Below are positions 18,114 to 64,000 of a DNA stretch of 64,000 nt, one piece after another; position 1 is the first letter of the stretch; the number at the start of each line of letters is the position of its first letter. The DNA is from Haliclystus octoradiatus (Eukaryota > Cnidaria > Staurozoa > Stauromedusae > Haliclystidae): positions 20,299,482 through 20,363,481 of the forward strand of contig OU744451.1 in NCBI GenBank assembly GCA_916610825.1. The letters are read 5' to 3'. Below the pieces are notes generated by a model. That model saw only the letters and a program-made list of their open reading frames with translations. It was not told where the DNA came from and did no database searches. The position numbers were made by a program, and so were the translations under genes.

Positions 18114-18114
18114 T

Positions 18115-35900: not shown

Positions 35901-38900
35901 ATTCCTACCTGTCTGCACATGACATTTTTCGTTTCATTTGAAAGACCTACACGTGAAGGAAGATAAATATAAGGCATGTAACATTATAGCTTAACGTTAT
36001 CATTTTCAAGATCAAATTTTACAAATCTTGAGGACAGGAAGACGAAAATTCAAGGCTTACTTTTACCTAGTCTTTTAAACAGCAAGGCCTAACTGTGAAA
36101 TTCAATAAAAAGTAAACACACAAGAAAGAGTAAAAGCTGGCTAAGCTTGGAAATCACATTTGATATTTCGAAATATTTATTTTCCAAGTTAAACTTACCC
36201 AATTTTCCTATGGATTTCTGTCCAAACATTTCAATGGGAACAGCAGACATTCAACTGAAAATAAATTAAAAAACAAATTATTAATATAATGAGTAGGTAG
36301 GCATGAGGGATCAGAAAAACGTTTTGCTAAAAGTATCAGACGAGACAATAATTCAAGTTGACCCGTACATACCTTGTAACCGGCTCATAGGCAGTCAGAC
36401 TAATTGGGAAGAACTAGGTATTGTATGCTGGTTTTCATTGCCTAAATCATTTCTTTCTTGGTTGAATCATAAACTTTTAACACTAGCAAATGACATCGAA
36501 TATGAACCATCCTTTTCGGTGGAGGAATTATCTTCCTGTTGGATTTTTCAGAAGCCGTTTATTTTGCTTATTTTGGCGCTTCGACAGAAATACGAATGCA
36601 GAAAGGGTCTGGAGAGATTATATGAAAGCGAGGCTCTGTGAAGTACCTAGCCTTTATGAAGACTTAGTGTTGCGAATAGAAATGCTAACTTCAAATTAAG
36701 AAGGAAGTGAACTTTTTTCAAAATTTTAATCAGAATTTCAATTCTATTTGACATTTTATCCAATAGAATCAGAACCTAAAACAATTTTATTAGCTTTAAA
36801 GTACTTTTTGCGTCTTTGCCATTTTTTCAAACTTTCAAACATCTTCCAATGAAATCTGAAAACGAGGCTCTGCGTGTCCGCAGGCAGGTTCGTTCGATCG
36901 ATTTGTTATTGCCCACAAAAATTGTTTGCTGTAGGCCAAATGCCTACTACGCTCCCGGTGAAAATGAGCAAAAAAATATTTGGCGGAAAATTTCTTCAAA
37001 TTTCAATATTTTTACTAAAGAAAATACTGACAAGTGTATTTATATAAAAAAGACAACTCCTGTTAGTTTTATTCAAAATGTTGGTCAAATTCTTTTTTAA
37101 TTCCATCCACATGAGTTTGAAAATTTGAACACTTCCAAGTCTTGTAGATCATTGTGTAGATTATGTAAACCACCGTAGTGCCTTATTCAGAAAAATCATA
37201 GACATTCTTCTTTCTGCAAATTGAGGTTAAATGGTCATATTTTCAATAGTAAACACTCAGGAGTATGCAAGTATGTCTAACAAACAATCCCATAGTTGAT
37301 ATTTTATTTAAAGTGCTGTTAATTGTTGATTTAATTTAAACAATAAATTTTAAATACATGGATTATGTAGCCAAAAGATAAAAATATCTACTTCAAAATG
37401 AAATTTGGTATCCCTTCAATGCCTTGCATAGAAAACACTCAAGATAACATCGTTATATTAACAAATTATCCCAGTCAATTTCAGTTGAAAATCTTATCTA
37501 ATGCACATTCAATTAATCTCCAAAAAGTTTTTATATACAACTGGCATATTTACAAAAATGACACACATCTTAATTTGTTTGCGATTTTGTTAAATGTCGA
37601 GATTGAATATAAAAAATACTCAAGGTTATATATACATCTTTCATAAACCATGCAAATCAAGTTCAATTGAAGATAACACTGAAAACTTCATTTAATCTTC
37701 AAAACGTTTTTGTACACAAAAGGCATATTTACAAAAATTGCACATATTTTAATTAATCAGTATGTGATTTTGTCAAATATCAATATTATAATTTCATAAA
37801 AAAAATACTCAAAGTCATATAAACATCATTAATAAACCACACAAATAAATTTAATTTGAAAATTGGATCAATCATAATATTTAATCTACAAGTTTACAAA
37901 AATTTACAAAATTTACAAAATTGAACATATCTTAATAAATAAATATGTCATTTTATCAAATGCTGATATTTCAAATAAAAAATACAAAAGGTCATATATA
38001 CATCTTTAATAAATTTATGCAAATCAATTTCAGTTAAATATTACATTGGAATCATAATTGAATCATCAAAAAATTTTGTATACAAATGGCATATTTCCAA
38101 AAATTGTACACATCTTATGTACCATGCGATTTTGTCAAATGTCGATATTTCAGATAAAAATTACTCCACGTGGTATATACATCTTTAATAAACTATGCAG
38201 ATAAATTTCAGTGAAAGTTTTGATGAAAAACTTCATTTAATCTTCAAAAAGTTTTTGTACACAAATGGCATATTTCCAAAAATTGTACACATCTTATGTA
38301 CCATGCGATTTTGTCAAATGTCGATATTTCAGATAAAAATTACTCCATGTGGTATATACATCTTTATTAAACTATGCAGATAAATTTCAGCAAAAGTTTT
38401 GATCAAAAACTTCATTTAATCTTCAAAAAGTTTTTGTACACAAATGGCATATTTCCAAAAATTGTACACATCTTATGTACCATGCGATTTTGTCAAATGT
38501 CGATATTTCAGATAAAAATTACTCCATGTGGTATATACATCTTTAATAAACTATGCAGATAAAGTTCAGTGAAAGTTTTGATCAAAAACTTCATTTAATC
38601 TTCAAAAAGTTTTTGTACACAAATGGCATATTTCCAAAAATTGTACACATCTTATGTACCATGCGATTTTGTCAAATGTCGATATTTCAGATAAAAATTA
38701 CTCCATGTGGTATATACATCTTTATTAAACTATGCAGATAAATTTCAGCAAAAGTTTTGATCAAAAACTTCATTTAATCTTCAAAAAGTTTTTGTACACA
38801 AATGGCATATTTCCAAAAATTGTACACATCTTATGTACCATGCGATTTTGTCAAATGTCGATATTTCAGATAAAAATTACTCCATGTGGTATATACATCT

Positions 38901-41900
38901 TTAATAAACTATGCAGATAAAGTTCAGTGAAAGTTTTGATCAAAAACTTCATTTAATCTTCAAAAAGTTTTTGTACACAAATGGCATATTTCCAAAAATT
39001 GTACACATCTTATGTACCATGCGATTTTGTCAAATGTCGATATTTCAGATAAAAATTACTCCATGTGGTATATACATCTTTATTAAACTATGCAGATAAA
39101 TTTCAGTGAAAATTTTGATCAAAAACTTCATTTAATCTTCAAAAAGTTTTTGTACACAAATGGCATATTTCCAAAAATTGTACACATCTTATGTACCACG
39201 CGATTTTGTCAAATGTCGATATTTCAGATAAAAATTACTCCATGTGGTATATACATCTTTATTAAACTATGCAGATAAATTTCAGCAAAAGTTTTGATCA
39301 AAAACTTCATTTAATCTTCAAAAGGTTTTTGTACACAAATGGCATATTTCCAAAAATTGTACACATCTTATGTACCATGCGATTTTGTCAAATGTCGATA
39401 TTTCAGATAAAAATTACTCCATGTGGTATATACATCTTTAATAAACTATGCAGATAAATTTCAGTGAAAGTTTTGATCAAAAACTTCATTTAATCTTCAA
39501 AAAGTTTTTGTACACAAATGGCATATTTCCAAAAATTGTACACATCTTATGTACCATGCGATTTTGTCAAATGTCGATATTTCAGATAAAAATTACTCCA
39601 TGTGGTATATACATCTTTATTAAACTATGCAGATAAATTTCAGTGAAAATTTTGATCAAAAACTTCATTTAATCTTCAAAAAGTTTTTGTACACAAATGG
39701 CATATTTCCAAAAATTGTACACATCTTATGTACCACGCGATTTTGTCAAATGTCGATATTTCAGATAAAAATTACTCCATGTGGTATATACATCTTTATT
39801 AAACTATGCAGATAAATTTCAGCAAAAGTTTTGATCAAAAACTTCATTTAATCTTCAAAAGGTTTTTGTACACAAATGGCATATTTCCAAAAATTGTACA
39901 CATCTTATGTACCATGCGATTTTGTCAAATGTCGATATTTCAGATAAAAACTACTCCATGTGGTATATACATCTTTAATAAACTATGCAGATAAATTTCA
40001 GTGAAAGTTTTGATCAAAAACTTCATTTAGTCTTCAAAAAGTTTTTGTACACAAATGGCATATTTCCAAAAATTGTACACATCTTACGTACCATGCGATT
40101 TTGTCAAATGTCGATATTTCAGATAAAAATTACTCCATGTGATATATACATCTTTAATAAACTATGGAATTCAATTTCAATGAAAGTTTTGATCAAAAAC
40201 TTCATTTAGTCTTCAAAAAGTTTTTGTACACAAATGGCATATTTCCAAAAATTGTACACATCTTACGTACCATGCGATTTTGTCAAATGTCGATATTTCA
40301 GATAAAAATTACTCCATGTGATATATACATCTTTAATAAACTATGGAATTCAATTTCAATGAAAGTTTTGATCAAAAACTTCATTTAGTCTTCAAAAAGT
40401 TTTTGTACACAAATGGCATATTTCCAAAAATTGTACACATCTTACGTACCATGCGATTTTGTCAAATGTCGATATTTCAGATAAAAATTACTCCATGTGG
40501 TATATACATCTTTATTAAACTATGCAGATAAATTTCAGCAAAAGTTTTGATCAAAAACTTCATTTAATCTTCAAAAAGTTTTTGTACACAAATGGCATAT
40601 TTCCAAAAATTGTACACATCTTATGCACGTCTTATGTTCCATGCGATTTTGTCAAATGTCGATATTTCAGATAAAAATTACTCCATGTGGTATATACATC
40701 ATTAATAAACTATGCAGATAAATTTCAGTGAAAGTTTTGATCAAAAACTTCATTTAATCTTCAACAAGTTTTTGAACACAAATGGCATATTTCCAAAAAT
40801 TGTACACATCTTATGTAACATGCGATTTTGTCAAACGTCGATATTTCAGATAAAAATTACTCCATATGATAAATACATCTTAAATAAACTATGGAATTCA
40901 ATTTCAGCGAAAGTTTTGATCAAAAACTTCATTTAATCTTCAAAAAGTTTTTGAACACAAATGGCATATTTCCAAAAATTGTACACATCTTATGCACGTC
41001 TTATGTTCCATGCGATTTTGTCAAATGTCGATATTTCAGATAAAAATTACTCCATGTGATAAATACATCTTTAATAAACTATGGAATTCAATTTCAGCGA
41101 AAAATTTGATCAAAAACTTCATTTAATCTTCAAAAAGTTTTTGTACACAAATGGCATATTTCCAAAAATTGTACACATCTTATGCACATCTTATGTTCCA
41201 TGTGATTTTGTCAAATGTCGATATTTCAGATAAAAATGACTCCATGTGATAAATACATCTTTAATAAACTATGGAATTCAATTTCAGCGACAGTTTTGAT
41301 CAAAAACTTCATTTAATCTTCAAAAAGTTTTTGTACACAAATGGCATATTTCCAAAAATTGTACACATCTTACGTACCATGCGATTTTGTCAAATGTCAA
41401 TATTTTATATAAAAATGACTCCATGTGATAAATACATCTTTAATAAACTATGGAATTCAATTTCAGCGAAAGCTTTGATCTAAAACTTTATTTAATTTTA
41501 AAAAACTTTTTGTACACAAATGGCATATTTCCAAAATTGTACACATCTTATGTACCATGCGATTTTGTCAAATGTCGATATTTCAGATAAAAATTACTCC
41601 ATGTGATATATAAATCTTTAACAAATAATGGAATTCAATTTCAGCGAAAGTTTTGATCAAAAACTTCATTTAATCTTCAAAAAGTTTTTGAACACAAATG
41701 GCATATTTCCAAAAATTGTACACATCTTATGTACCATGCGATTTTGTCAAACGTCGATATTTGAGATAAAAATTACTCCATGTGATATATACATCTTTAA
41801 TAAACTATGGAAGTCAATTTCAATGAAAGTTTTGATCAAAACTTCATTTAGTCTTCAAAAAGTTTTTGTACGCAAATGGCATATTTCCAAAAATTGTACA

Positions 41901-44900
41901 CATCTTACGTACCATGCGATTTTGTCAAATGTCGATATTTCAGATAAAAATTACTCCATGTGGTATATACATCTTTATTAAACTATGCAAATAAATTTCA
42001 GTGAAAGTTTTGATCAAAAACTTCATTTAATCTTCAAAAAGTTTTTGAACACAAATGGCATATTTCCAAAAATTGTACACATCTTATGTACCATGCGATT
42101 TTGTCAAATGTCGATATTTCAGATAAAAATTACTCCATGTGGTATATACATCTTTAATAAACTATGCAGATAAATTTCAGTGAAAGTTTTGATCAAAAAC
42201 TTCATTTAATCTTCAACAAGTTTTTGAACACAAATGGTATATTTCCAAAAATTGTACACATCTTATGTAACATGGGATTTTGTCAAACGTCGATATTTCA
42301 GATAAAAATTACTCCATATGATAAATACATCTTAAATAAACTATGGAATTCAATTTCAGCGAAAGTTTTGATCAAAAACTTCATTTAATCTTCAAAAAGT
42401 TTTTGAACACAAATGGCATATTTCCAAAAATTGTACACATCTTATGTACCATGCGATTTTGTCAAACGTCGATATTTGAGATAAAAATTACTCCATGTGA
42501 TATATACATCTTTAATAAACTATGGAAGTCAATTTCAATGAAAGTTTTGATCAAAACTTCATTTAGTCTTCAAAAAGTTTTTGTACGCAAATGGCATATT
42601 TCCAAAAATTGTACACATCTTATGTACCATGCAATTTTGTCAAATGTCGATATTTCAGATAAAAATTACTCCATGTGGTATATACATCTTTATTAAACTA
42701 TGCAGATAAATTTCAGTGAAAATTTTGATCAAAAACTTCGTTTAATCTTCAAAAAGTTTTTGTACACAAATGGCATATTTCCAAAAATTGTACACATCTT
42801 ATGTACCATGCGATTTTGTCAAATGTCGATATTTCAGATAAAAATTACTCCATGTGGTATATACATCTTTATTAAACTATGCAGATAAATTTCAGCAAAA
42901 GTTTTGATCAAAAACTTCATTTAATCTTCAAAAAGTTTTTGTACGCAAATGGCATATTTCCAAAAATTGTACACATCTTATGTACCATGCAATTTTGTCA
43001 AATGTCGATATTTCAGATAAAAATTACTCCATGTGGTATATACATCTTTATTAAACTATGCAGATAAATTTCAGTGAAAATTTTGATCAAAAACTTCGTT
43101 TAATCTTCAAAAAGTTTTTGTACACAAATGGCATATTTCCAAAAATTGTACACATCTTATGTACCATGCGATTTTGTCAAATGTCGATATTTCAGATAAA
43201 AATTACTCCATGTGGTATATACATCTTTATTAAACTATGCAGATAAATTTCAGCAAAAGTTTTGATCAAAAACTTCATTTAATCTTCAAAAAGTTTTTGT
43301 ATACAAATGGCATATTTCCAAAAATTGTACACATCTTATGTACCATGCGATTTTGTCAAATGTCGATATTTCAGATAAAAATTACTCCATGTGGTATATA
43401 CATCTTTAATAAACTATGCAGATAAATTTCAGTGAAAGTTTTGATCAAAAACTTCATTCAATCTTCAAAAAGTTTTTGTACACAAATGGCATATTTCCAA
43501 AAATTGTACACATCTTATGTACCATGCGATTTTGTCAAATGTCGATATTTCAGATAAAAATTACTCCATGTGATATATAAATCTTTAACAAATAATGGAA
43601 TTCAATTTCAGTGAAAGTTTTGATCAAAAAATTCATTCAATTCTTCAAAAAGTTTTTGTACAAAAAAGGCATGTTTACAAAAACTGCATATGTCTGGATT
43701 GTTGGAGATTTTGTCAGTGATGAAGTTTCAGTCAAAAAATAATCAGTGTCAGGACCAAAATTAGTGTTTTATAGAAACTGCCGAAACAAAATTTTAGTTA
43801 AAATATTTGTCAAATGCAGACTCAATCTGCATAAATTGTTTCTAAGTATATGCCTCATTTGGCAATAATCTTCCAATTAAGTCTATACGATAATTATAGT
43901 GTCTAGGGTCAATGCTAAGGACAATGTAGGTATCTAGTACATCATCTTTTCAGCACAATTGCAGTAATTACGTATTACGATGATATATATATCTAATATA
44001 TTTCAAAAAATTACTCAAACTGATTTTTGTTGAATACCATATTTGCCGTCTATATCAATTTTAATAAATATCCAAATTCATGATCTCCACCATAAATAAG
44101 TTATAAATCTTTGTACTTCCACAATATTAGCTGTTGGTTGACAGTTACATGTAAGTGAACTGTAGTAGCAACTATAGTATATTTGTAAATGAACTGTAGT
44201 ACACTAGTAGCAACCATGGTATATTTTATAAAATTCCACTCTAGTATTGGTTCATTACTTCAATTTTCTGATCTTGTAAATGCCATTTGAAGTAATAGAC
44301 TACCGGTAATAGAATAAATTTCTAAGAAATGCTATTATTGATAGCATTAATAGGTAAAAGCAATCCAATGTTGGTGAATCAAGGCTCTACAAAGACAAAT
44401 ATTAGAACATTGATTATTAACTTATTAAAAATTATTGAAACTAGCTGAGCTGATGATTTATGAAAAATTGCTACTGGAAGTGAATAACATCAGTAGTGCT
44501 AGGCATCCTGCAGAGTAATATGTCTATATGAATATATCCTACATCGTACATTGGTTAAAAACAAGGTAAAAATGTTCATAGCACGTTCACAATCAATTTT
44601 CTTGTTTGAGTAACATAAATTACAAGTTATTCAAAATTTGAAGTTCCTCTGACATCGGGAAAGGGCTTTTAACGACTTTCTAAAGCAATCTGTTTGAAAC
44701 AATTGAAAAATGTGGAAGCTGTGAAAATAGTTGTTTAGACAAGCGTGTGACCGATTTAAATTAATTTATTCAATTCCAATACATATTTTTGTAACAGCCA
44801 CTTCAAATTAGAAACTAATCAAAATCAGCGAGAACAAATAACTGCTAAGTAGCAGTTCAGAATCTTCATTGATTGATAATTGATGTCTTGAAAAGCATTT

Positions 44901-47900
44901 AATTGTTTACGCATATGTTATGAATCACGATTGGCTATTACGTCGAAAAGTTTTATGTCGAAAAGTTTAACGTCGAAAATTTAACGTCGAAAAAAATAAA
45001 CCGCAAAAATGGATGTTTAATGTCGAAAAGCGGTTTTATTGCCATTTTATTTTTCTGCGTTTTTTTTCTGCGATTTTTTTAATTGTGCTGTTAAAGTGGG
45101 AATATACCCCCAGACTATCTTTACATATGTAGTAGAACTCGACGTGAAAAAAACAATGCCGTAATTTTTTTTTCGATCTGGAAATTATTTCTTGGTGAAA
45201 AATGCCTTCAAAGTGGTGTTTTGACCCAAATGTCGCTGAGAAAAAAAAGGGATTGGATCTAGCTTTATGACGACAAAGTCACAAGTCGTGCGGTTTTTCT
45301 AATAGTTAGATCGAATTAGTCACGCGATGTTGCGTTTGAGATGGCGTAGCTCTGTAACAGCAATCTATTTTTCTCTCTCACAAAACTGAGGTAAGGAAGA
45401 ACATATAAACTCAAGAGTAGCAAAATTCCAGATGATTTAATGATTTTGAAGTTTACGAATTTGAAGAAAATAAAAATCAGAAAATGTTTCATTCGTAGCA
45501 CGTGTTATACAGATTATATTTTAACATATCATTCTCACACATATTTAACACATATCAAAAGATTCTCTGGTGAGCACAATAGCTAGATAAGTAGAATTTA
45601 TTGTTGTAAGCATGAGTCTGAACTGATAATGGAGTATTCTTTTGAGGGTAAAAATCATAACGTATGGCGGGAAACGCTATAAGAACACCATAACCGTTAA
45701 TTTTATAGTCCTCTTTTCACAGAAACGAAATCTGCTCATCTGATTTATCGTCTCTGTAGAAAGGTATTTTTTGCAAAGTATAGCTTCTGCACTGTACATT
45801 ACCACATCCTATAAACTACAGATTGTGATATGAATGATGCTAACATGTTCTACTTTCTAGCCAAAGGAATGAATACTAGACTGGTAATACAATTTGGTGG
45901 CGTATGTATGATCAGGAACGAGAATTCACATTGCAAAACCCTAATTTTGTTAATCAGATAACGTTGGTAGAGAGGATAACAATTTATGCAATGAAGATAT
46001 AACGCAAAACCGAAAAATGATAGAATATGCATAACCGTAGTTCTGGTATACGGCTGTAAACTTGTATAAGAACGTCCAAGCCCTCATATCATTGTTGTAC
46101 TATTTTCCGATATTTTATAGAATTTTAGAGTGTAATGTACTGAAGAATTTTCGATGCTTTTATAATAATTGAATGCTTGGTGAATAAATGATGAACACTT
46201 TGTTAGACTATTGAGTATAATATATCTGTCTACAGTCGTATAAACTATACGATTACATGGTTAAAGAATTAATAGACAAACATCAATTTCAACTTAAACT
46301 TTGAAATGATAATTGAAAAATGTCTATTTAATAATTTAGTAATACTTAAAGAAATCCGAAAAAGTACAATTAATACTTTGCAGTACCAACTATTTCGAAA
46401 GAAAAGTCGTCTGTGCATGCCTGTGCAAATCGAGTCAGTTTACATTCACATTTAGATCAAGAAAAGGATATCTTGTAGAAATATTTACTCAAGAACAAAT
46501 TTCAGATAGAGTTAAAAATAGTTATAACTTATTTATATAGCGTAGGATAAAGCTATTTCGAAGGGCACGTGTCTAATTAAGATTTGAAGAAGTACTGCGG
46601 TCACACAGAATACGTAACTAATATGTATCACTAGACTAGTCACAAAGGAGCACTCGCACCGCCTGACATTTGTGTTTATCCGCAATCTATATCAGATTCT
46701 TGGTAAAGGTTTACTTGACATGAATTTCATGATGGTATATGCGATAAAAAACACACAATAATTGGCGCAACAGTTTCGATTTAATCTAAAATCATGTAAA
46801 AAGTAAATGTAATGTAATGTAAAAAGATTGACGTTCTTACTTAATTATGAAATCATTTACATCAAAAGATCCCTTATTATTAAATGCATTCAAAGTCTAT
46901 GTAAGACCTATTCTAGAGACTTGTTCCCCAGTTTGGAACCCTTGCTTAGCAAAAGATATCGTATTGCTAGAAAAAATTCAGCGATTTTTTACAAGATTCA
47001 TATGTAACGTTGCCAACCTCAAATTTATTGATTACTGTGATCGCCTAAAGCTCCTCAAGCTAGAATCATTAGAGTCGAGGAGGGTTAAAGCTGATTTAAT
47101 CATGATTTATAAAATCACGCATGACTTAGTTGATTTATCTCTTGATTCGATAAATTGTAAATATCTTGTAAACAAATATGCAATGCGTGGTCATCCTTAC
47201 AAACTATATTCAACGCAAATGTGTAGGACCAATATTACGAAATTTATGTTTAACAACAGAGTGATACCATGGTGGAACTCACTACCGGACTTTGCAGTTA
47301 ATTCTAAGAATGTCAAAGAGTTCAAGGCATCACTCGAAAAAGTAAACACGTTATCACATTGTAAAATTTTTGGCTATGGTTAATCAGTTAATCATTGCAA
47401 CAATATCTTTAAATTAATTACTTATATACAATCAATTTATCACACATTAATTATCTTCTTATTCATGTATTATATATATTACTTAGGCCACATGTTAGTG
47501 AGGGTGCAAACTCTCCTTTGTTCTTGCCTGTCATTTTTTGGCAAATAAATGAATGAATAGAGTTGAAAAATTACATGAATATTTATATAAAAATCTAATT
47601 AATTTGTCTATTGAATTTATCGGAACGGTATTATACTTTTTAACAATGGCAAACAATAATTACAGGAGAGATATTTTAGCATAAGATTACGAATATATAC
47701 GATACAAACACGGTGAAATAACAGTTACAATCAAAAATAGTTCAACAGCGGCAAAATGCTCTTTGGTATTATTCTTCCATTTTCTGTATTTCTTCCGGTC
47801 GTTGTTTAATATATTGCCGACCTGAGTGGTCGACATGACAGCATCGCGCATGTCACACAAGATAACAACAGTTAGATTTAGCGTAACTATGAATATGGAA

Positions 47901-50900
47901 TAGCAATAGTTTAGTACAAATTGACAAACAGAAAAACCAAGTACCGATATACTTTAAGACAGATACAATGAAATAATTATTACAACCAAAAACAAATAAT
48001 CCAAAATCCATTCATCAATGAAAAATATTCTATCAGATTGATTACCAACTTTCTGTATTTCCTCTGGTCGTTGTTGAAAAAATTGCCGACTTGATTGGCC
48101 GACATGACAGCATCGCGCATGTCACACAAGACAATAGACAAATTAATTAGATTTTTATATAAATATTCATGTAACTTTTTAACTCTCTCTTTTTACATTG
48201 CCTGAAGATGATTTTAGATTAAATCGAAACTGTTGCACCAATTATTGTGTTTTTTATCGCATATACCATCATATATATCAGATTCATCGCGCTTAATGAC
48301 GCTACGAGAAATTATTTCGACTGAGCGTTGCAATAGATTTTATTCTGCTCCTGTAATCACAAATTGCATCTTTTTACGTAATTCGGGAGTGTATATGTTT
48401 GTTCATGGCTCAGCCTTGTCAGAAATTTTTGTTGTGTGACCTCTCGGAGCTAGGTCACCTCAAAGATAGCGTCGCGTAATCAGCCAACTCTAAAGTCTGT
48501 TAGACAAACCGCACGACTTGTGACTTTATCCAATCCCTTTTTTTCTCAGCGAAAATGAATAACTTGATTAAAAAACCCTTTAAAATGAAAAGTATTGGAC
48601 ACTGTAGAAAGGTAACATATAGATACACCTTCTTATGTAGTTTTAACTATCAATTATAGTTATTTAAGTATAGTTTGTAATGAATCAAATTCATGTGTTA
48701 TTGTTAGTGATGAAAATCGCGTTGTGTCCCGATAGGTTTAATGTCGAAAATGAATAACTTGATTAAAAAACTCTTTAAAATGAAAAGTATTGGACACTGT
48801 GAAAAGATACCATATAGATACACCTTCTTATGTAGTTTTAACTATCAATTATAGTTATTTAAGTAGAGTTTGAAATGAATCAAATTCATGTGTTATTGTT
48901 AGTGATGAAAATCGCGTTATGTGAAAATCGCGTTGTGTCCCGATAGGTTTAATGTCGAAAATGAATAACTTGATTAAAAAACCCTTTAAAATGAAAAGTA
49001 TTGGACACTGTAGAAAGGTAACATATTGATACACCTTCTTATGTAGTTTTAGCTATCAATTATAGTTATTTAAGTATAGTTTGTAATGAATCAAATTCAT
49101 GTGTTATTGTTAGTGATGAGAATCGCGTTCTGCCCCGACAGGCTTAATGTCGAAAATGAATAACTTGATTAAAAAACCCTTTAAATTGAAAAGTATTGGA
49201 CACTGTAGAAAGGTAACGTATAGATACACCTTCTTATGTAGTTTTAACTATCAATTATAGTTATTTAAGTATAGTTTGTAATGAATCAAATTCATGTGTT
49301 ATTGTTTGTGATGAAAATCGCGTTGTGTCCCTATAGGTTTAATGTCGAAAATGAATAACTTGATTAAAAAACCCTTTAAAATGAAAAGTATTGGACACTG
49401 TAGAAAGGTAACGTATAGATACACCTTCTTATGTAGTTTTAACTATCAATTATAGTTATTTAAGTATAGTTTGTAATGAATCAAATTCATGTGTTATTGT
49501 TAGTGATGAAAATCGCGTTGTGTCCCGATAGGTTTAATGTCGAAAATGAATAACTTGATTAAAAAACCTTTTAAAATGAAAAGTATTGGACACTGTAAAA
49601 AGATACCATATAGATACACCTTCTTATGTAGTTTTAACTATCAATTATAGTTATTTAAGTAGAGTTTGAAATGAATCAAATTCATGTGTTATTGTTAGTG
49701 ATGAAAATCGCGTTATGTGAAAATCGCGTTGTGTCCCGATAGGTTTAATGTCGAAAATGAATAACTTGATTAAAAAACCCTTTAAAATGAAAAGTATTGG
49801 ACACTGTAGAAAGGTAACATATTGATACACCTTCTTATGTAGTTTTAACTATCAATTATAGTTATTTAAGTATAGTTTGTAATGAATCAAATTCACGTGT
49901 TATTGTTAGTGATGAGAATCGCGTTCTGCCCCGACAGGTTTAATGTCGAAAATGAATAACTTGATTAAAAAACCCTTTAAAATGAAAAGTATTGGACATT
50001 GTAGAAAGATACCATATAGATACACCTTCTTATGTAGTTTTAACTATCAATTATAGTTATTTAAGTATAGTTTGTAATGAATCAAATTCATGTGTTATTG
50101 TTTGTGATGAAAATCGCGTTGTGTCCCGATAGGTTTAATGTCGAAAATGAATAACTTGATTAAAAAACCCTTTAAAATGAAAAGTATTGGACACTGTAGA
50201 AAGGTAACGTATAGATACACCTTTTTATGTAGTTTTAACTATCAATTATAGTAATTTAAGTATAGTTTGTAATGAATCAAATTCATGTGTTATTGTTAGT
50301 GATGAAAATCGCGTTGTGTCCCGATAGGTTTAATGTCGAAAATGAATAACTTGATTAAAAAACCCTTTAAAATGAAAAGTATTGGACACTGTAGAAAGGT
50401 AGCATATAGATACACCTTCTTATGTAGTTTTAACTATCAATTATAGTTATTTAAGTATAGTTTGTAATGAATCAAATTCATGTGTTATTGTTAGTGATGA
50501 GAATCGCGTTCTGCCCCGACAGGTTTAATGTCGAAAATGAATAACTTGATTAAAAAACCCTTTAAAATGAAAAGTATTGGACACCGTAGAAAGGTAACAT
50601 ATAGATACACCTTCTTATGTAGTTTTAACTATCAATTATAGTTATTTAAGTATAGTTTGTAATGAATCAAATTCATGTGTTATTGTTAGTGATGAAATCG
50701 CGTTATGTGAAAATCGCGCTGTGTCCCGATAGGTTTAATGTCGAAAATGAATAACTTGATTAAAAAACCCTTTAAAATGAAAAGTATTGGACACTGTAGA
50801 AAGGTACCGTATAGATACACCTTCTTATGTAGTTTTATCTATCAATTATAGTTATTTAAGTATAGTTTGTAATGAATCAAATTCATGTGTTATTGTTAGT

Positions 50901-53900
50901 GATGAAAATCGCGTTGTGTCCCGATAGGTTTAATGTCGAAAATGAATAACTTGATTAAAAAACCCTTTAAAATGAAAAGTATTGGACACTGTAGAAAGGC
51001 AACGTATATATACACCTTCTTATGTAGTTTTAACTATCAATTATAGTTATTTAAGTATAGTTTGTAATGAATCAAATTCATGTGTTATTGTTTGTGATGA
51101 AAATCGCGTTGTGTCCCGATAGGTTTAATGTCGAAAATGAATAACTTGATTAAAAAACCCTTTAAAATGAAAAGTATTGGACACTGTAGAAAGGTAACGT
51201 ATAGATACACCTTCTTATGTAGTTTTAACTATCAATTATAGTAATTTAAGTATAGTTTGTAATGAATCAAATTCATGTGTTATTGTTAGTGATGAAAATC
51301 GCGTTGTGTCCCGATAGGTTTAATGTCGAAAATGAATAACTTGATTAAAAAACCTTTTAAAATGAAAAGTATTGGACACTGTAAAAAGATACCATATAGA
51401 TACACCTTCTTATGTAGTTTTAACTATCAATTATAGTTATTTAAGTAGAGTTTGAAATGAATCAAATTCATGTGTTATTGTTAGTGATGAAAATCGCGTT
51501 ATGTGAAAATCGCGTTGTGTCCCGATAGGTTTAATGTCGAAAATGAATAACTTGATTAAAAAACCCTTTAAAATGAAAAGTATTGGACACTGTAGAAAGG
51601 TAACATATTGATACACCTTCTTATGTAGTTTTAACTATCAATTATAGTTATTTAAGTATAGTTTGTAATGAATCAAATTCACGTGTTATTGTTAGTGATG
51701 AGAATCGCGTTCTGCCCCGACAGGTTTAATGTCGAAAATGAATAACTTGATTAAAAAACCCTTTAAAATGAAAAGTATTGGACATTGTAGAAAGATACCA
51801 TATAGATACACCTTCTTATGTAGTTTTAACTATCAATTATAGTTATTTAAGTATAGTTTGTAATGAATCAAATTCATGTGTTATTGTTTTGTTAGTGATG
51901 AAAATCGCGTTGTGTCCCGATAGGTTTAATGTCGAAAATGAATAACTTGATTAAAAAACCCTTTAAAATGAAAAGTATTGGACACTGTAGAAAGATACCA
52001 TATATATACACCTTCTTATGTAGTTTTAACTATCAATTATAATTATTTAAGTATAGTTTGTAATGAATCAAATTCATGTGTTATTGTTAGTGATGAAAAT
52101 CGCGTTGTGTCCCGATATGTTTCATGTCGAAAATCAATAGCTTGATGAAAAAGCCCTTCAAAATTAAAAGTATACGGAATGTCGCGTTGTTACTTGATAA
52201 GTTTAATTTCGAAAACTAAATTTGAGATTGATCAAAAGTTTCTTCGTGAAACATTTCAGAGTGAAAGATAGCAACAAAAAACTACAAATAGATTATTTAT
52301 TATACCATCGTCAGTTCAAAAGAATAAATTTTAATTTACAAATTATTTATAGGCTATAATGGATTTATAAACTTAACACATTGTAATTGTTATAATACTG
52401 CTAGAAATTAGACAATGAAAAAGGAAGGAACCTAGTCAATTACAAATGTGCTATATTTATGCAGTACTTTACAAAAGGAGTCGGGAACGGATAGAGTCAC
52501 TCTGAGTGCATTGTGAGGTTTTTTATCAAGGATAATTAACATTTCATGTACTACACAGTCGAATTTATTGCTACATTTTTCTCTACTGAAAATAAATGTT
52601 GTGATTCATCCATAGTTTTATTGTGGGAATGTAAATGTCTTCTGATAATATCTTCCGTGAATGTAAAATTGTAAATGTATTTGAACTGACGATGGTATAA
52701 TGAATAATACCCAAATTTTTTCAACATCACTTCTTGTAGTTTTTTGTTGCTTTGAAATAAATTTAAGATGGAATTGTAATAAAATAATACACCATCGTAT
52801 TAGGTTAATACTATAAGTTATTAGATATATATTTTTTTGGGGGGGGTGTAACACGGTAATTGGGGGGGCCAACGTGACAGAGGTGTAATTCCAGCCTCTT
52901 CAAAGAACAAAACTTGAAAATGCTCCTAAAAAGTTCCTAAAATCCAACAAAATACGGTAATTTTTTATTTTTCCAATTCAAAGTTGATTTCTCAAAACTC
53001 TCAACAAATTTGAAAAGGAGACTAAAATCTGAATTTTGCAATCCAATTGTTCTCATCGTAATCGTTTATCGGGGTGAACAATTTAATCCATCGTTTTATC
53101 ACGATTCTTTGTTTCACTATTACGTTTGACCATGGTTTGACTATTTCTCAAAAATGTAGTGTATTTCCGCAGTATCCTTTTGCCACCGGGATTGTGTCTG
53201 TTTAACAGTGGGGAATCTGTCATAACAAAGCGAACAAAGTTAGTGTACGTGTAAATAAGATAAATTCAAATGTAATATAGTTAAAAGTTGGCAAGTGCAC
53301 GCCCCTGCTATATAGGTGCACGTTGGTTTAATAGTCTTCATATTTAATTAAAATTTTGATTGCACCACCATGCGATAGGTACACGCCAGTAATATCCATA
53401 TGTAAAAAAGTTTTTTAAGTGCGCACCCTGCTATATGTGCACGCCGGTACTCTTCTATATATTTAGTTTTATATGCACGCCCTGCTATAGGTGCACGCCG
53501 GTAATAATCTTCATATTTAAATTCAAGTTTTAAATGCACGCCCTGCTATAGGTGCACGCTGGTAATATTCTTTATATTTAGTTTGATGTGCACGCCGGTA
53601 ACATTCTTCAGATTTAAATTTAAGTTTTAAGTGCACGCCCCCCTACAAGTTTCCCTGTATTTGCCTGTCACCATTGTTGACAAATAAAATACATACATAC
53701 AAATAGGTGCACGCCGGTAATATTCTTTATATTTAGTTTTATGTGCACGCCGGTAACATTCTTCAGATTTAAATTTAAGTTTTAAGTGCACGCCGGTAAT
53801 AGTCTTTATATTTAGTTTTATGTGCACGCCGGTAACATTCTTCAGATTTAAATTTAAGTTTTAAGTGCACGCCCTCCTATAGGTGCACGCCGGTAATATT

Positions 53901-56900
53901 CTTTATATTTAGTTTTATGTGCACGCCCTGCTATAGGTGCACGCCGGTAATAATCTTCATAGTTAAATTCAAGTTTTAAGTGCACGCCCTGCTATAGGTG
54001 CACGCTGGTAATATTCTTTATATTTAGTTTGATGTGCACGCCGGTAATATTCTTCAGATTTAAATTTAAGTTTTAAGTGCACGCCCTCCTATAGGTGCAC
54101 GCCGGTAATATTCTTTATATTTAGTTTTATGTGCACGCCCTGCTATAGGTGCACGCCGGTAATAATCTTCATATTTAAATTCAAGTTTTAAGTGCACGCC
54201 CTGCTATAGGTGCACGCCGGTAATATTCTTTATATTTAGTTTCATGTGCACGCCCCTGCTATAGGTGCACGCCGGTAATAATCTTCATATTTAAATTCAA
54301 GTTTTAAATGCACGCCCTCCTATACGTGCACGCTGGTACTATTCTTTATATTTAGACGATACGATAGGGTGCACGCCGGTAATATTCTTCATATTTAAAT
54401 TCAAATTATAAGTGCACGCTCATACGATAAGTGCACTCCGGTAATATTCTTATTTAGTTTTATGTGCACGCCCCTACTATAAGTACACGCCGGTGATATT
54501 CTTCATATTTAAATTCAAGTTATAAGTGCACGCCCATACGATAGATGCACGCCAGTAATATTATTCATATTTAAAAAAAAATAAAGGGCACGCCCATGAG
54601 ATAGGTGCACGCTCTTAACATTTAAAAACTTTTACGTCCACGCCTCTGTTTTAGGTGCACGCTGTCGATATTTTAGGTTTTCGTTTCGTGTAAAATTGCG
54701 GTAATTATTTTACTTCCGCGGCAAATCGTGCCGGCTCCTTCTTGTATCTACGTCATTTCGTGCAAAATTGCGGCGACAATTTTTGCCGCGCGGCAAAATA
54801 TCGTAGATGCACGTGGAAAAACGTACATTTTGGGATTTATGTCGAAAATTTAACGTCGAAAAAATTTTTTCGACGTTAAACTTTTCGACGTTATAGCGTA
54901 CAATCTTATGAATGTGTAAACTCTTTTTTTATAAAACATTCAACTACAGTGAAAACAAATACTTGGCATACTTTCTAAAGGTTGATTAAAATATATTTTA
55001 TCAGACGTACGTAAATATTGTGGTGACCTCAGTATTGTGACAAATTTCTATTGTAATATTGCACACGTTATGTTGCTGTTAAATTGAATGTTGTATCTAT
55101 TTTGTAATCACTCTCTTTTCTGTTGGTTTGAGGCCATGCTTTGAATCACGCTTATAAGTAATGATTGAAAGGTTAGCATATAGATATTGGACATACACAT
55201 ACCTCATTTGCTTTTCTTGGACATCTTGGTTTGATTATGACAATTGATTTGCATTTGAGTTTTAGTAAGTTAGTTGGCAACCAGGATTTTCTTACCTATT
55301 CATATTATAAGATTAACTCCCCAAAACATTTACAACAGCGTTACTATCTGCTTATTCCAAGAGGAAATTGCTAGGCGAAGCTAAACACTCTGGCGCTAAG
55401 CTAGATCAAACTAATTCCATCGAAGTAGTTGTATGCCAAGGCCATTGCCTTCAGTTTGGTTTTTTAATTTACCAACGTTTGAAAGGTGACACTCATAAAT
55501 CGAATAAAATAAAACAAATCAAAACCAGTAAAAATATAGAACAACAATAATAAAAGTTATCTTTGTGAACCACAACTATACCAATATAACCATCCAAACT
55601 TGCCAAATTGTTTTGACAAATCATACAAATTTATATCGAAGGAATAAAGCTAAAATGGACGCCAAGATGGAGAATCTGAAATAGCCTCTCTCCTGAATTC
55701 TATTTTGTGAAATTGAGATTTGCAAAACATATTGTTGGCTCTGCGCAAAAAAATTACAGAATTACTTGCTGAACATGAATAGGAAATATCATTGCTATAA
55801 GGCCAACTAAGTAATATGAAATATGAATATGATGCGCCGCTATTAGTAATAAGTCTAAGGTAATAACACAAGGTTTTGAAGATAAAATTCAAACTTGAAC
55901 ATTAACCTTAATCTAGCCTTTTTTGACTAGGTAGTATTAGATGATGCCACTAAACTATATTAAGACTATCCATATGTTGTCAGTTTGTCAATGTAATTGC
56001 ACGTGACATGCGGCAGAAGCATCTTAAGGCTTGGAAGAGCAACTGAGCAACCGGATCTTTAAATGCGTTGCGATATATGAAGCAAAAGTCGATGTTTAAA
56101 ATGTTTCAGCAACGTTGCTTCAGCGTTGCGACAGCGTTGCGAATGAGATCTATTCTCATTAAAATTATTACATTGCAGCAGCGTTGCAACTACGGACAAA
56201 GTAACGTCGGAAGAGCTACCTATTTTGCAACATCCGTGCAACGTTGTGAAAAGGTAGCATATGGTAGCAAAGACGTTGCACAACTTGCAACCTCAAAACA
56301 ACTATTGAACAACGTTGTTGCTACGTAGTGTGCCTGCTGGGATATTGTTCAAGTATTGATGGACGAGTGGTCCAAGGTCACTCAGGATTTCTAAAATAGC
56401 GCGCATTCATTAGGTATGAACCCCATGAGTGGTGGTTTTTATTTCAATTCTTTTTCCTTTGCTCTCAAATGCAATTCAATGACAATATAACCAAACTTGA
56501 TTGAAGATGTTGCACAGTAGTATTTATATTTAAAGGAACATTATCATTCTGCTTGCAAAGACCGCCGAATAAATGCAGGGGAAAACCGAAACAATTTGAA
56601 ATGACCATCGAAATGATTTCTTTCAACAGATACGTTTGATAACAAAATAGGAATATAATTATGTCAGGATTAGGGAAAAATAATAACAGAATCAATTATA
56701 TTTAAACTTTATAACAATAATAATATAACATAATTAATTTGATCAAGGGTTTATTTCAATTGAATGCGCATGCTGGGTAAATTTCCATGGCTTTATGCTG
56801 GTCCTACCTTAAAGTAGCATTGCATCAGCGTACACCGTGATTTACCAAAATTATCAGCTAAACCATTACCTCACAACAATGTTGCAGCAACGTTGGGTTG

Positions 56901-59900
56901 AAAACAGCGATTTACACAAATTTTCATTCAAACCATTACCTTAAAACAACGTTGCAGCAACATTGGGTGCAGTACCGTTTTTATTGCCCAATTATAGGTT
57001 AAACCATTACCTTAAAAAAACGTTGCAGCAGCGTTGCGTTGAACATAGAGATTTCTACTCAATTACTCAAAAACAACGTCGCAGCAACTGTTTTTCCGGG
57101 TTGCCGGTTGGTTGTACCGACGTTGTACAGCGTTGCGACCACCAAACAACCGATATGCAACGTTGCACCAGCGTTGTGTGCCTGCTGGGACTATGAAAAT
57201 TAAACCCCTCAGCCCTTTTGGAGATAAGGACGTTTCAGTAGATGAACCTGCACTAAAATTTATCTATATTCTTTACTCATTCAGACAAAGAAACTGCTCT
57301 GCAAACTTACGCGGGAGTATTTACATTATGCAAACGTAGAGAAGCTATAGTGTACAATTATGAGTTATGTGATGGTAGATATGACTGCGAAGACAAAACC
57401 GACGAAGATAACTGTTCTGCTAGTAAGTTTTCACGAACTAATTACCAACATTTATAAAATAGAATGATTGAATCTTTCATTTAAACCCTATAATGTTGAA
57501 GCCCTGTCGATAAATTGAAACACAAACACTCCTCACTTTGTGATTCGAAATGAAATTGAATGGTATGATTCGGCTATGATTAACGATAACCTGGTTGAAC
57601 AAGAGCATTTCTTCGATTCATAGTTTGACAATTCAAGATTTGCAAAGTGTCTAGTGACGACTTCCACTTTCCAGCATTTTCTGTGCAACTTCTACTAATA
57701 GAATAAAATAAAACATTTAAACAACCCCTCAATTCTTATGCTGCGTCAAAGATCATCAAATCTATACAATATTTTTTTTAATTATTAGATAATATCAACT
57801 TTCATATGCAGTGGTTAATGCTTTTGACAGTTGTCTGCAGGATCTTCAATCTCTGGCAGGAGCAATATTGTTTTGCCGTCAGGGAACGCATTTGTCTTCA
57901 GGATAAAACTCGAAGGCAAAAATTACGAGCCGAGGCGGCTGGAAATTTTCTGATGCCTTCTCGTTTCCTCCTTACGTGCCTCTCGTGGTGCTATCAGAGC
58001 ATAGTTTTCGGAAAGTATGAACAATTTGTTTAATAAAATATAACCCCTTTTCAAAAAATCCTTCCCCGTTGCGGTATGATTCCTTAATATGTTGAAAAAT
58101 TCTTGAATCGTCAAACCATGAATCGAAGCAATGCTCTTGTTCACCCAGGTTATCGTTAACTATCGTTAACTATTTGGTTTAGAACATAGCCAGCCCCGAT
58201 TTGTGACTGTTGGGGTCGTGGGACGTTTTTTCAGAGCATTTTCTGATCTTTACAATCCTTGATCAAGTATGTAATTCTCCTATTTTCGTGATGTCACGGG
58301 AAGAAAGCTGAGTCGAGAGCTGTACACTTGCTTGATTCACTTGCCTTATTTAAATCAACTAAAAGCTGCGAGGAAAAATTTATAACGAGAAATTTATATT
58401 TCTCTCGGATTTCTCTTCTTGCAATAAAAAGAATGGATGCTTAACATCGTTTTCTTACATAGTCATTGATTCTTATCTTTAAACAATATTTTCTATGGCT
58501 TGTGTGTATTATTCATTATGAAAAACTGACTGGAAAAACTTGAAAATGAAAGAAAATGTTTTTTGCCTATAATTTGAAGAATTTTGTAAAAAGCCGTGAA
58601 CGCGAAATAAGAAATGAAACAAACAAAGATTTATTGACTAAATGTTTGCTAATTACCTATTAAAAGGGCAGATTATTGAATTTATGATCACTTCTAGCTA
58701 ACTGATTATATAATGTTGCTAACTTTCATTTGGAGAAATGGATTAAATATTTGAAACTTTAGTGGTTGAATTTGTTTTGGCTTTGGTAGTTCATCGAAAG
58801 CTTTCCTTTCTATGACAGGAATTTAGTGCTTATACTTATAACTAGGAACTTTCAAAAATTGGCCATAAAAGGATGAGGGGATGAATAAATGAAATGAAGT
58901 TATGTTATGTTATGTTTTTACAATTATCAATACCGTAAAAGTTAAAAATTCGGCAAATTGTTTTTGAATTGTTAAATTGTTAAGATATTTCTATACACTT
59001 CAAACCTGTTTGTTTACTGGCCCAGATATTTCTCCTGCAAGCCATTTGATTTAATTTGAACAACTGAGAAACTGAGAAACTGCATGAAACAGTTACTCAA
59101 TAAAATTGTATATGACTCTACAAATATTCACTGTATTTACTTTTACTTTTTATTACTTGCCAGTTTATAATGCCATATATTTAAATAATTATCGGTTGTT
59201 TGGTATTTTCATAAATTTCTTGAAATCTACGGGGTCAAGCTCGGCTATGGTGAATGGCGTTATTGCCGTTAACCAATCAAATTGCAAGAATAAATCGTTG
59301 CAGATCCTTTATATGTTCTAATATTATCTAATTCTACGTTATAATATAATATAATTTGAGCTGATGACATGTATATGACGGTGTTCAATGCTTGTTAAGA
59401 GAGAGCGTAATATAGAACTTGCATTTTGTTACTAGGAGGTTCACTCATTTATTTTGCGATCATCAGACGGTTGATAATCTCAAAATAAGTTTGTGAAACT
59501 CCGACTAACGGAAAAGGCTTTGCCTCACCTTTGTGGCAATTCTATATATTTCTACTTTATAAATCTAGTATTAAACACCTTTTCGTGCAATTTTGATTAT
59601 ATAAGTAATCGAGCTGCAAATGAGCCACTCAAAAGGTTTTAATGATGAAATAATACGAACAACATGAATCTGTGTTTGATTTCTTCGGTGTCATGCATGT
59701 TATTAGAGCCATAAACTCGTCGGGCTTTCCATGTTACTTATTCTATGCTTATGGTGATGATGAGGATTTCTCTTCGTAGTTCGTTGTAAAATAGACCAAA
59801 CTAGCTTAAACATGCAAAACATCCTCTGGAAAAGAACAGAAATTGACAAGCTAGCTGTCGTAAAGTGCTCAGATTTCAACTCTAACTATACAGGTAAGAA

Positions 59901-62169: not shown

Positions 62170-64000
62170 ATGATAGATGTACTAAGTATTTTTATTTTAT
62201 CTTATTTTATTTTATTTTGTTTCTATTTCATTTTATTTTACTTATTTATTAAAGTTGAAGTACCGACAGCTGATTGACATAAACCAATAATTGAACTTCC
62301 ATTCAAGGGACAATAGATATGCGATAGCTGATTCTTTAAATTCTGGGAAGCTGATTCTAATAATTCTGGGAAAAAGTTCCAGGCTCTGGTACCAACTGCC
62401 ACAAAAGACCATTTTATCAGGGTCGTTCGACATACTGCGTAGATCAATTTTTATGTCGTTTAGAACATGCATATTTTGTGTTGGAAATGGTGAAAAGAGG
62501 GTGTATGAGCTTCGGAGTTTCCGTTGACAATGTCTTGTGAATAAGGATTGATTATTTTACAATTCTTCTGATGTGTAGACTTGGGTGATGGTGCTCAGTT
62601 TCAGTATTACGTCATGTTAGATGATTTAGATTTTTCTTCTGAATTCTTTCTAGTTTTAATCTATCAGTTAGAGTGATTCCAAGTAAAAGAAGACTACAAT
62701 GTTCAAGTTGAGGACGGATGTTTGTGGCGTATAAAGTGATGTTGCCAAGTTAGGATTTAATGATATTTTGACTTGTCTAATTTGATATAATGAGAGATTG
62801 ACTTTTCTGATACAATTTTGGAGATTGCATCTCATATTTATTTTATTGTTAATATGAACACCTACAATCTTTATTCGTTCTAGCCAAGGTAAGTTGATAT
62901 CGTCAATTGTGATTTTTTCATTATTTGTTCCACTAGTGCTGATTTGGTTGACGTCTGTGTTGGCTATGTGGATGCTGGGTTTTGAAAAGTGTGTAATCAT
63001 AAGACATTGTGTTTTTGATGGGTTCAGCTTTAGATAATTTGTTTCGAACCACTGATGTATCTTTAGCATATCTTGATTCAGGTACTGAACAGCTGTAGGT
63101 TTTTCTTTCGAGGAATAGTGTAAGGTGGTACCGTCTGCGTATCGTATGAGAGAGGATTTTATCTGAAGAATTGACAGGTCAGCTACGTAGATATTGAACA
63201 ATAGTGGTGACAGTATTGAACCGTGTGGGACTCCTCAAGAGCATGGGAAAGGAGTTGACATTTGATTGTCGATTTTTATTGAATGTGATCTTCCATTTAG
63301 GTAGCTTTTGATGAAATTGCAGCTTGCTAAATTGATTCCATAAGCTTACAATTTCTGCAGCAGAAGTTTATGATTCACCATGTCAAATTCTTCCGAGAGA
63401 TCGAGAGAGAGAACTGCAGTATAATTCTTGCTGTTGATGGAATCTTCAGTACGCATCAAGAGGGCCATTTCGGCACTGTGACCGTGTATAAATCCAAACA
63501 TATCGGGTGGAAAGATTGGAGTAAAGTGATGTTGGAGTTGAGTTGATAAGATTCCTTCGAATTCCTTAGAAATATGAGCGAGAATAGTAATAGGGCGATA
63601 GTTTTCCTTGTTTGATGTATCTTGGTTTTTGAATATTGGTGAGACTATTCCATCTTTCCAATCGTTTGGTACTTCATTAATAGTTATTAAATGCTTGAAG
63701 AGATCGGTGACGATGGGAAGTAAAGCTAGGTAGAATTGTTTTAAGGAAGTTTGAAGAAATATTATCAGCTCCAGTGGCTTTGTTACTATTGAAGTTTTTG
63801 ATGATGTTGTATACTTCATCATCTGACGTGTACTCAAAACAGAAGGATGTGCAAGAAAGATTCGTGATATTGTTAATGCTTGGCTGATTGTTGAGGTATT
63901 TGTCAGTCCAAACTGGAGAAGGTGGGATAAATTTTTCGAATTAGCTTTCAATTAGTTGTGCTTTCTCTTTAGCAGAGGTGATTAGGCAATTGTTTTCTTG
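62170..64000 (-). mobile_element. Degenerate LINE (CR1/Jockey-like), minus strand, runs off the window
   Basis: On the minus strand the RT of a non-LTR element is readable in pieces. 63346-63951: the first RT blocks with NEVPNDWKDGIVSPIFKNQD, NYRPITILAHISKEFE, FGFIHGHSAEMALL and LSLDLSEEFDMVNH. 62668-63201: the catalytic box RYADGTTLHY in place of YADD, then LKLNPSKTQCLM and the thumb. 62238-62472: C-terminal end with GTRAWNFFPELL. Frame shifts and stops separate the pieces. A T-rich run at 62180-62250 is the A-rich 3' tail. The altered YADD box and the breaks make it inactive. It sits in the last visible intron of the second receptor gene, opposite to it. Confidence 0.85.

What the first reader, a model, noticed from the sequence alone, without database searches (positions are those of the whole stretch)
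44934..54897. A 10-kb TIR-bounded composite whose terminal motif is the seed of its internal satellite
The word TTAAyGTCGAAAA occurs four to five times at the left end, at the right end in inverted form, and once in every unit of the 195-bp satellite inside (about 18 more). Transposon ends and satellite unit thus share sequence, as if the array arose by amplification of end sequence, or as if the motif is a binding site multiplied within the element. The combination of outer TIRs, nested foldbacks and two unlike tandem arrays in one bounded block does not match any transposon class I know.
Basis: partly seen in the sequence, partly recalled or inferred. Interest (0 to 1): 0.8.

Follow-up and report, generated by a model that had tools for sequence, protein, structure and literature searches.

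The report
Foldback transposon carrying an expanding satellite
The 10-kb block is one copy of a young family of jumping DNA elements that carry a growing tandem-repeat array around the genome; it is a large example of a kind of transposon (foldback elements) already known to breed satellite DNA.

Summary
The element is window 44926-54905 (8 bp longer on each side than stated), flanked by the 8-bp duplication TTATGAAT. Exact outer ends occur 69 times in this 262-Mb genome; 48 of them form 24 facing pairs, each one left type and one right type. I read 21 pairs (window included): 19 have an 8-9 bp target duplication; lengths run from 239 bp to 30.9 kb. None holds a transposase. In 10 of 18 long copies the left arm carries the same two repeats as the right arm, inverted: a Foldback-type transposon with very long, unequal, internally repetitive arms; the window copy has lost its left-arm repeats. 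The nested foldback is a separate TTAA-target element. The 195-bp array (0-122 full units) grows by block duplication inside copies and, as far as sampled, is nearly confined to the family. Each unit shares 15 bp with the left end and otherwise no word over 9 bp. Drosophila Tetris has a very similar arrangement in print; Tm1 of Meloidogyne (Phantom/Mutator-like) has the same kind of ends. The autonomous partner was not found; a Mutator link is only suggestive and the P-type search did not complete.

The parts
44918..44925 (.). left copy of the 8-bp target-site duplication TTATGAAT
44926..44933 (+). left tip CACGATTG, outside the inverted repeat; the first three bases differ in some copies (CGC in E06 and L053, TGT in L063)
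44934..45029 (+). left-end motif array: GTCGAAAA at element positions 17, 32, 47, 61, 97
45091..48552 (.). remains of a nested foldback element inserted at TTAA (45091-45094; TIR AGTGGGAATA...). Its right TIR end and the left-arm repeats behind it are deleted in this copy; older copies keep both TIRs, and five fetched single left ends show the unoccupied sequence
46796..47565 (+). insertion (borders approximate) present in 10 of 18 long copies at the same site, ending AAATAAATGAATGAATAG, with a 183-aa ORF (46832-47383); read as a LINE 3' end by recall only, no Pfam match over cut-off and no PDB match
46729..48272 (.). inner inverted repeats (46729-46795 / 48208-48272 and 47559-47613 / 48132-48186)
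48550..52173 (+). 195-bp satellite array of the right arm, 18.2 copies by TRF, 17 full units by profile, one shared motif per unit
52174..53280 (+). right-arm region between the two arrays; about 52227-52645 of it also matches at least 12 places elsewhere (77-87%) and has its own inverted repeat 52292-52320 / 52680-52708, so it probably holds another small repeat
53290..54665 (+). GTGCACGCC tandem array of the right arm (borders approximate)
54836..54897 (.). right-end motif cluster: two inward-pointing GTCGAAAA at positions 17 and 32 from the tip, two outward-pointing ones at 44 and 58
54898..54905 (+). right tip GTACAATC, outside the inverted repeat
54906..54913 (.). right copy of the target-site duplication TTATGAAT

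Best explanation
The block is one copy of a young, non-autonomous Foldback-type DNA transposon family. Shown by comparison of copies: ends with 8 non-inverted terminal bases and then phased GTCGAAAA repeats; 8-bp target duplications; in older copies two arms built of the same two repeats in opposite orientation; a right-arm 195-bp array that lengthens by duplication of multi-unit blocks and is carried along, so arrays are scattered over at least seven contigs. Inferred: a transposase supplied in trans, probably of the Mutator (MULE/Phantom-like) kind, binds the phased GTCGAAAA repeats and cuts at the tips; [quoted passage not shown] array growth comes from unequal exchange or gap repair.
For: 69 exact ends, 36 forward and 33 reverse against 0 and 1 for the reversed pattern; all 24 exact pairs join a left type (GCTATTACG) and a right type (GCTATAACG) facing each other, 21 ends have no exact partner. 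TSD of 8-9 bp in 19 of 21 copies read. Copies of 239 and 432 bp keep tips and TSD. A second motif at position 32 in 33 of 36 left ends and 19 of 21 right ends of the paired copies (position 17 is fixed by the search pattern). Left arms of 10 of 18 long copies hold two 195-bp units and 1-3 GTGCACGCC units inverted, and four single left ends hold inverted 195-bp units. Same LINE-like insertion in 10 of 18 long copies. Sisters E03 and E16 differ by 0.1% in a scaffold segment but have 57 and 22 full units, with repeated multi-unit blocks. Satellite hits bounded by ends: 87 of 87 and 31 of 34. Tm1 has asymmetric tips, 13-15 bp tandem repeats and 8-10 bp TSDs with a Phantom-like transposase (passages); Galileo tandem repeats bind its transposase domain (passages).
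Against: No ORF of 150 aa or more in 21 copies except the 183-aa LINE-like one. None of 85 MULE hits lies between paired ends. The Mutator link rests on end structure plus one post hoc co-location. Motif conservation is mixed: few variants among distinct units (11 of 194 windows as low; a 32-bp block picked after the fact 4 of 194) but no deficit of singletons (90 of 194). Units within one element are hardly more alike than between elements (0.025-0.051 against a mean of 0.038), so arrays were not freshly amplified from one unit in each copy. E04 and E14 lack a TSD. Two satellite hits stay unexplained (C1:30107266, C6:22807460).
Confidence: 0.8

Rival explanations
1. Foldback-like element of the P superfamily (Galileo-type) or another superfamily with 8-bp duplications (hAT, Merlin), not Mutator.
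For: 8-bp TSDs also fit P and hAT (recalled); Galileo is a P-type transposon with the same kind of arms, tandem repeats and binding sites (passages).
Against: The tips are not inverted copies of each other and only the left one starts with CA, unlike P and hAT as recalled; short non-inverted ends outside sub-terminal repeats are described for Mutator-like elements (passage). The P-family genome search did not complete and hAT and Merlin were not searched, so this is untested.
Confidence: 0.25
2. The motif in the satellite is only a passenger: a 15-bp end-derived piece was trapped when the unit formed, the array expands neutrally, and the motif has no role.
For: Only 15 bp shared; singletons not depleted in the motif; copies without any 195-bp unit (E08, E09, E17) have clean TSDs.
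Against: The motif is among the less variable windows of the unit (10 of 182 as low, 11 of 194); of 7 diverged left-arm stretches, 5 keep the exact GTCGAAAA and 2 differ by one base.
Confidence: 0.45
3. A satellite block that happens to be flanked by unrelated inverted repeats (chance composite, not a mobile unit).
For: The block is nested and chimeric.
Against: 21 copies read have the same ends, 18 of them share the scaffold, and 19 have a target duplication.
Confidence: 0.01

Closest known systems
Tetris (Drosophila virilis foldback element; PMC4079207, passages seen)
   Same: Foldback arms with ~220-bp internal tandem repeats; the repeat shares a 37-bp stretch (~80%) with the outer arm domain; 8-10 bp TSDs; non-autonomous; repeats feed satellite arrays; its authors already propose origin from the end and extra binding sites
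   Different: Tetris arrays were amplified mainly in beta-heterochromatin and only three complete copies were found; here long arrays (up to ~24 kb) sit inside complete, TSD-flanked copies on several contigs, the arms are very unequal and only 15 bp are shared
Tm1 (Meloidogyne Mutator/Foldback; PMC3169594, passages seen)
   Same: Asymmetric non-inverted tips (7 bp there, 8 bp here), TIRs of 13-15 bp tandem repeats in variable number, 8-10 bp TSDs, short MITE-like derivatives
   Different: The passages show elements of about 0.4-2.6 kb without a satellite array and one copy with a Phantom-like transposase; motif sequences differ
Galileo (Drosophila; PMC3573991 and PMC3688188, passages seen)
   Same: Long internally repetitive arms, tandem repeat number changing independently in the two arms, transposase sites in the tandem repeats, chimeric copies with mismatched TSDs
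   Different: P-superfamily transposase, 7-bp TSD, TIRs of 18-1250 bp and at most a few repeat units
Cg_HINE Helentrons of oyster (PMC7492417, abstract and outline seen)
   Same: Non-autonomous elements that carry and spread satellite-like arrays
   Different: Helentron type; the present ends are inverted and make an 8-bp TSD

Membership tests
Foldback-type (long internally repetitive TIR) transposon | Long inverted arms built of internal direct repeats | tested here: met
   10 of 18 long copies have both repeat types in the left arm, inverted to those in the right arm; the window copy itself has lost the left-arm repeats
Foldback-type (long internally repetitive TIR) transposon | Target-site duplication and dispersed copies with the same ends | tested here: met
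   19 of 21 copies read
Foldback-type (long internally repetitive TIR) transposon | Repeat number varies between copies and between arms | tested here: met
   0-122 full units per copy; two inverted units in left arms against 7-122 full units in right arms
Mutator / Phantom superfamily | MULE-domain transposase inside the same ends | tested here: inconclusive
   85 MULE hits, none between paired ends; a decayed MULE with two copies lies near family remnants at both its places
Mutator / Phantom superfamily | TSD of about 8-11 bp (range recalled) and, in some members, short non-inverted tips outside sub-terminal inverted repeats | tested here: met
   the non-inverted tips are described in the passage; neither feature is exclusive to Mutator
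P superfamily (Galileo) | P-type transposase with these ends | not tested
   PF21787 search did not complete in 24 tries (call numbers in Tried and rejected)
Helitron / Helentron | No TSD and no inverted ends (recalled) | tested here: not met
   8-bp TSDs and inverted ends
piggyBac / Kolobok (outer element) | TTAA target duplication | tested here: not met
   Outer TSDs are 8 bp and varied; TTAA fits only the nested element

The most novel reading that the evidence does not exclude
The array is a working part: each unit is a spare transposase-binding site, transposase activity on the array provokes the breaks by which it expands, and the family thereby sows self-growing, transposase-binding satellites across the chromosomes, comparable to a CENP-B-box-bearing satellite (recalled) caught while still inside its transposon.
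Probability: 0.12. Interest if true: 0.7.

Novelty: new member of a known kind. Interest (0 to 1): 0.42.

Why it matters
Here the growth of satellite DNA can be followed copy by copy: near-identical, TSD-flanked copies with 0 to 122 full units show that arrays grow by block duplication inside mobile elements and are carried to new places. That makes the proposed route 'transposon arm to satellite' (Tetris) testable in a contiguous assembly, and gives a clear test of whether a transposase-site-like motif is kept in a satellite by use or by descent.

Tried and rejected
Chance composite: rejected. Helitron and TTAA types for the outer element: rejected by the TSDs. Coding content: 11 of the 20 ORFs of 60 aa or more inside the block were scanned and gave only sub-cut-off Pfam matches; the 183-aa ORF gave no PDB match; the window gave no Rfam match at gathering threshold. 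Neighbouring 179-bp satellite (37508-43683): no bounding inverted repeat among the 25 longest shown. Fresh amplification from one unit in each copy: rejected. Autonomous copy at single ends: only two single ends were read to 10 kb (L020, same place as L050, and L025, same place as L051); L025 is an ordinary copy with no ORF of 100 aa, L020 an old copy with inverted left-arm units, a few direct GTGCACGCC units, no direct 195-bp array and no right end, beside what looks (recalled) like a host exon; Pfam silent at 0.01. MULE link: stretches at C6:22810280 and C11:7599080 are 93% identical and the only two copies found (2 of 2 candidates scored); the first is 2.8 kb from a lone satellite hit, the second 12.7 kb inward of a left end; a third MULE hit (C11:7625099) is 13.3 kb outside that same end. 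Chance that both copies of a pair fall within 15 kb of a feature is about 6.5e-5, about 0.006 over 85 hits, computed after the fact. No arm sequence was listed next to either, but those searches scored only 40 of 402 and 40 of 70 candidates. Host organism not identified. Sea-urchin TU elements (recalled as foldback with 15-bp repeats and 8-bp duplications) could not be read: the search found no paper; the Tetris paper names the sea urchin among hosts of foldback elements (passage).
Full report
WHAT IS THERE. The window lies at G000:C7:20299482-20363481 of an unnamed 261.9-Mb assembly in 33 contigs. The motif GTCGAAAA occurs 27 times in the window against a shuffle mean of 2.39, and all 27 are in the block (0 in the remaining 54,021 bases). 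The boundaries need a small correction. Comparison with other copies shows 8 conserved bases outside each inverted repeat, CACGATTG on the left and GTACAATC on the right; outside those is the 8-bp duplication TTATGAAT. The element is 44926-54905, 9980 bp.

A FAMILY. An exact search for GCTATWACGTCGAAAAG gave 69 places (36 forward, 33 reverse; reversed control 0 and 1). 48 of them form 24 pairs, each with one left end (GCTATTACG) and one right end (GCTATAACG) facing each other; 21 have no exact partner. I name the 20 E01-E20 in contig order: C1 starts 4745802, 5500435, 8110357, 10521534, 23822963, 31654426; C2 2224794, 3490162, 38167311; C4 774166, 7211748, 8481618, 9042547, 18047764, 18215181, 23381211; C7 5237624, 22556960; C8 4001192, 5224064. 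Of the 21 copies, 19 carry an 8-bp duplication (9 bp in E08) and 2 (E04, E14) carry none. Lengths run from 239 bp (E17) to 30.9 kb (E06). A search with the last 146 bp gave 40 places, whole or partial, at 77-100% identity, with 40 of 43 candidates scored, so there are older members too. Young copies are nearly identical: window and E01 differ by 0.1% over 1.4 kb.

FOLDBACK ARCHITECTURE. In 10 of 18 long copies (E08, E09 and E17 left out as short) the left arm carries two 195-bp units and one to three GTGCACGCC units in inverted orientation, in the same order from the tip as on the right. The window copy and 6 others (E01, E04, E07, E11, E12, E13) have none of these left-arm repeats, and in E14 the middle is flipped. 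Of 20 single-end stretches read, four left ends (L050, L051, L059, L062) also show inverted 195-bp units. The whole is therefore a transposon with very long, internally repetitive and unequal arms. At the ends, the motif at position 17 from the tip is fixed by the search pattern and is no evidence; the next one, at position 32, is found in 33 of 36 left ends, in 19 of 21 right ends of the paired copies and in 1 of 6 right ends among the single stretches. Of 123 spacings between left-end motifs, 90 are 14 or 15 bp and 27 are 36 bp; left ends hold 1 to 6 motifs. Such phasing is what one expects of transposase sites (inference).

NESTED PARTS. In older copies a piece bounded by AGTGGGAATAAACCC... 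inverted repeats sits in the left arm between two TTAA copies, while L050, L055, L059, L062 and L068 show the unoccupied sequence. In 10 of 18 long copies it holds the same further insertion with a 183-aa ORF (the ORF is unbroken at 150 aa or more in 7 of the 21 copies). I read it as a LINE 3' end by its look and tail; Pfam gives only sub-cut-off matches and PDB none. Part of the region between the two arrays (about 52227-52645) also occurs at 12 or more places elsewhere at 77-87%, so a further small repeat probably sits there. Shared nested insertions show that the composite has spread as a unit.

THE SATELLITE. I counted 485 full units in 17 of 21 copies, 7 to 122 per copy. The 28-mer core occurs 581 times in the genome, 451 of them in my 21 copies; the other 130 were not placed, since the list stops at 100. 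All 87 hits of a variant 34-mer and 31 of 34 array-border hits lie between 26 paired ends (2 of the pairs with mismatched ends) or within 15 kb inward of a single end; the 34-mer was chosen from fetched copies, which favours this result. Of the 3 exceptions, C8:300605 lies by an old copy with a right end 7.5 kb away; C1:30107266 and C6:22807460 remain unexplained. Arrays contain repeated multi-unit blocks. E03 and E16, 0.1% apart in a 1.4-kb scaffold segment, have 57 and 22 full units; E04 and E07, also 0.1% apart, have 54 and 23. Units are about as different within a copy (0.025-0.051) as between copies (mean 0.038), so arrays are inherited as arrays and then lengthen by block duplication.

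THE SHARED MOTIF. The unit and the left end share GTTTAATGTCGAAAA, 15 bp; 0 of 2000 shuffles reach 15, though the finding was chosen because of it. With it masked the longest shared word is 9 bp. GTCGAAAA is exact in 478 of 485 units. The motif lies in a low-variation part of the unit (10 of 182 windows as low; 11 of 194 on distinct units), yet singleton variants are not depleted there (90 of 194 windows as low), so selection is not shown. Both 'secondary binding site' and 'passenger' remain open.

MECHANISM AND SUPERFAMILY. No copy holds a recognisable transposase, so mobility must be supplied in trans (inference). Asymmetric tips outside sub-terminal repeats, a 14-15 bp tandem motif and 8-9 bp duplications match Tm1, whose transposase resembles the Phantom subclass of Mutator (PMC3169594, passages). 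The genome has 85 MULE hits over cut-off (the model also rings in 3 of 14 control genomes), several in long open frames; none lies inside the 26 paired intervals, since only 3 lie within 20 kb of any of 86 family features and those 3 are outside pairs. One decayed MULE with just two copies lies near family remnants in both places, a post hoc coincidence of about 0.006, with no arm sequence listed beside it in two capped searches. The P-type search did not complete, and hAT, Merlin and KDZ were not searched.

COMPARISON. Tetris (PMC4079207, passages) has ~220-bp repeats in its arms, a 37-bp stretch shared between repeat and outer domain, 8-10 bp duplications, and satellite arrays derived from it; its authors already propose origin from the end and extra binding sites. 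Galileo's arm repeats bind its transposase domain (PMC3688188, passages), and its arms vary in repeat number independently, with chimeric copies lacking matching TSDs (PMC3573991, passages). Oyster Helentrons spread satellite-like arrays by another route (PMC7492417, abstract). The present family is therefore a new member of a known kind, notable for array length inside complete copies and for the copy-by-copy record.

Noticed in passing
window 37508-43683: A second, different satellite: 179-bp unit, 34 copies, just upstream of the element; no bounding inverted repeat among those shown.
   Followed up: partly
window 56839-57065: 70-bp tandem repeat, about three copies, with GTTGCAGCAACGTTG palindromes.
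   Followed up: no
E14 = G000:C4:18047756-18060485: Interior inverted; about 780 bp of extra sequence lies at both breakpoints, and an insert of about that size sits at one of these points in E07 and E11, as if recombination between inverted copies had flipped it.
   Followed up: partly
window 52227-52645: A stretch of the right arm that also occurs at 12 or more unrelated-looking places at 77-87% identity, probably a separate small repeat.
   Followed up: no
L061 (C7:611400-612400): An old left end about 0.8 kb upstream of what looks (from recall) like the start of a NUDC-like gene.
   Followed up: no
   Followed up: no
window 62668-63951 and 16625-19041: Retroelement-like reverse transcriptase and integrase ORFs, by eye.
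   Followed up: no
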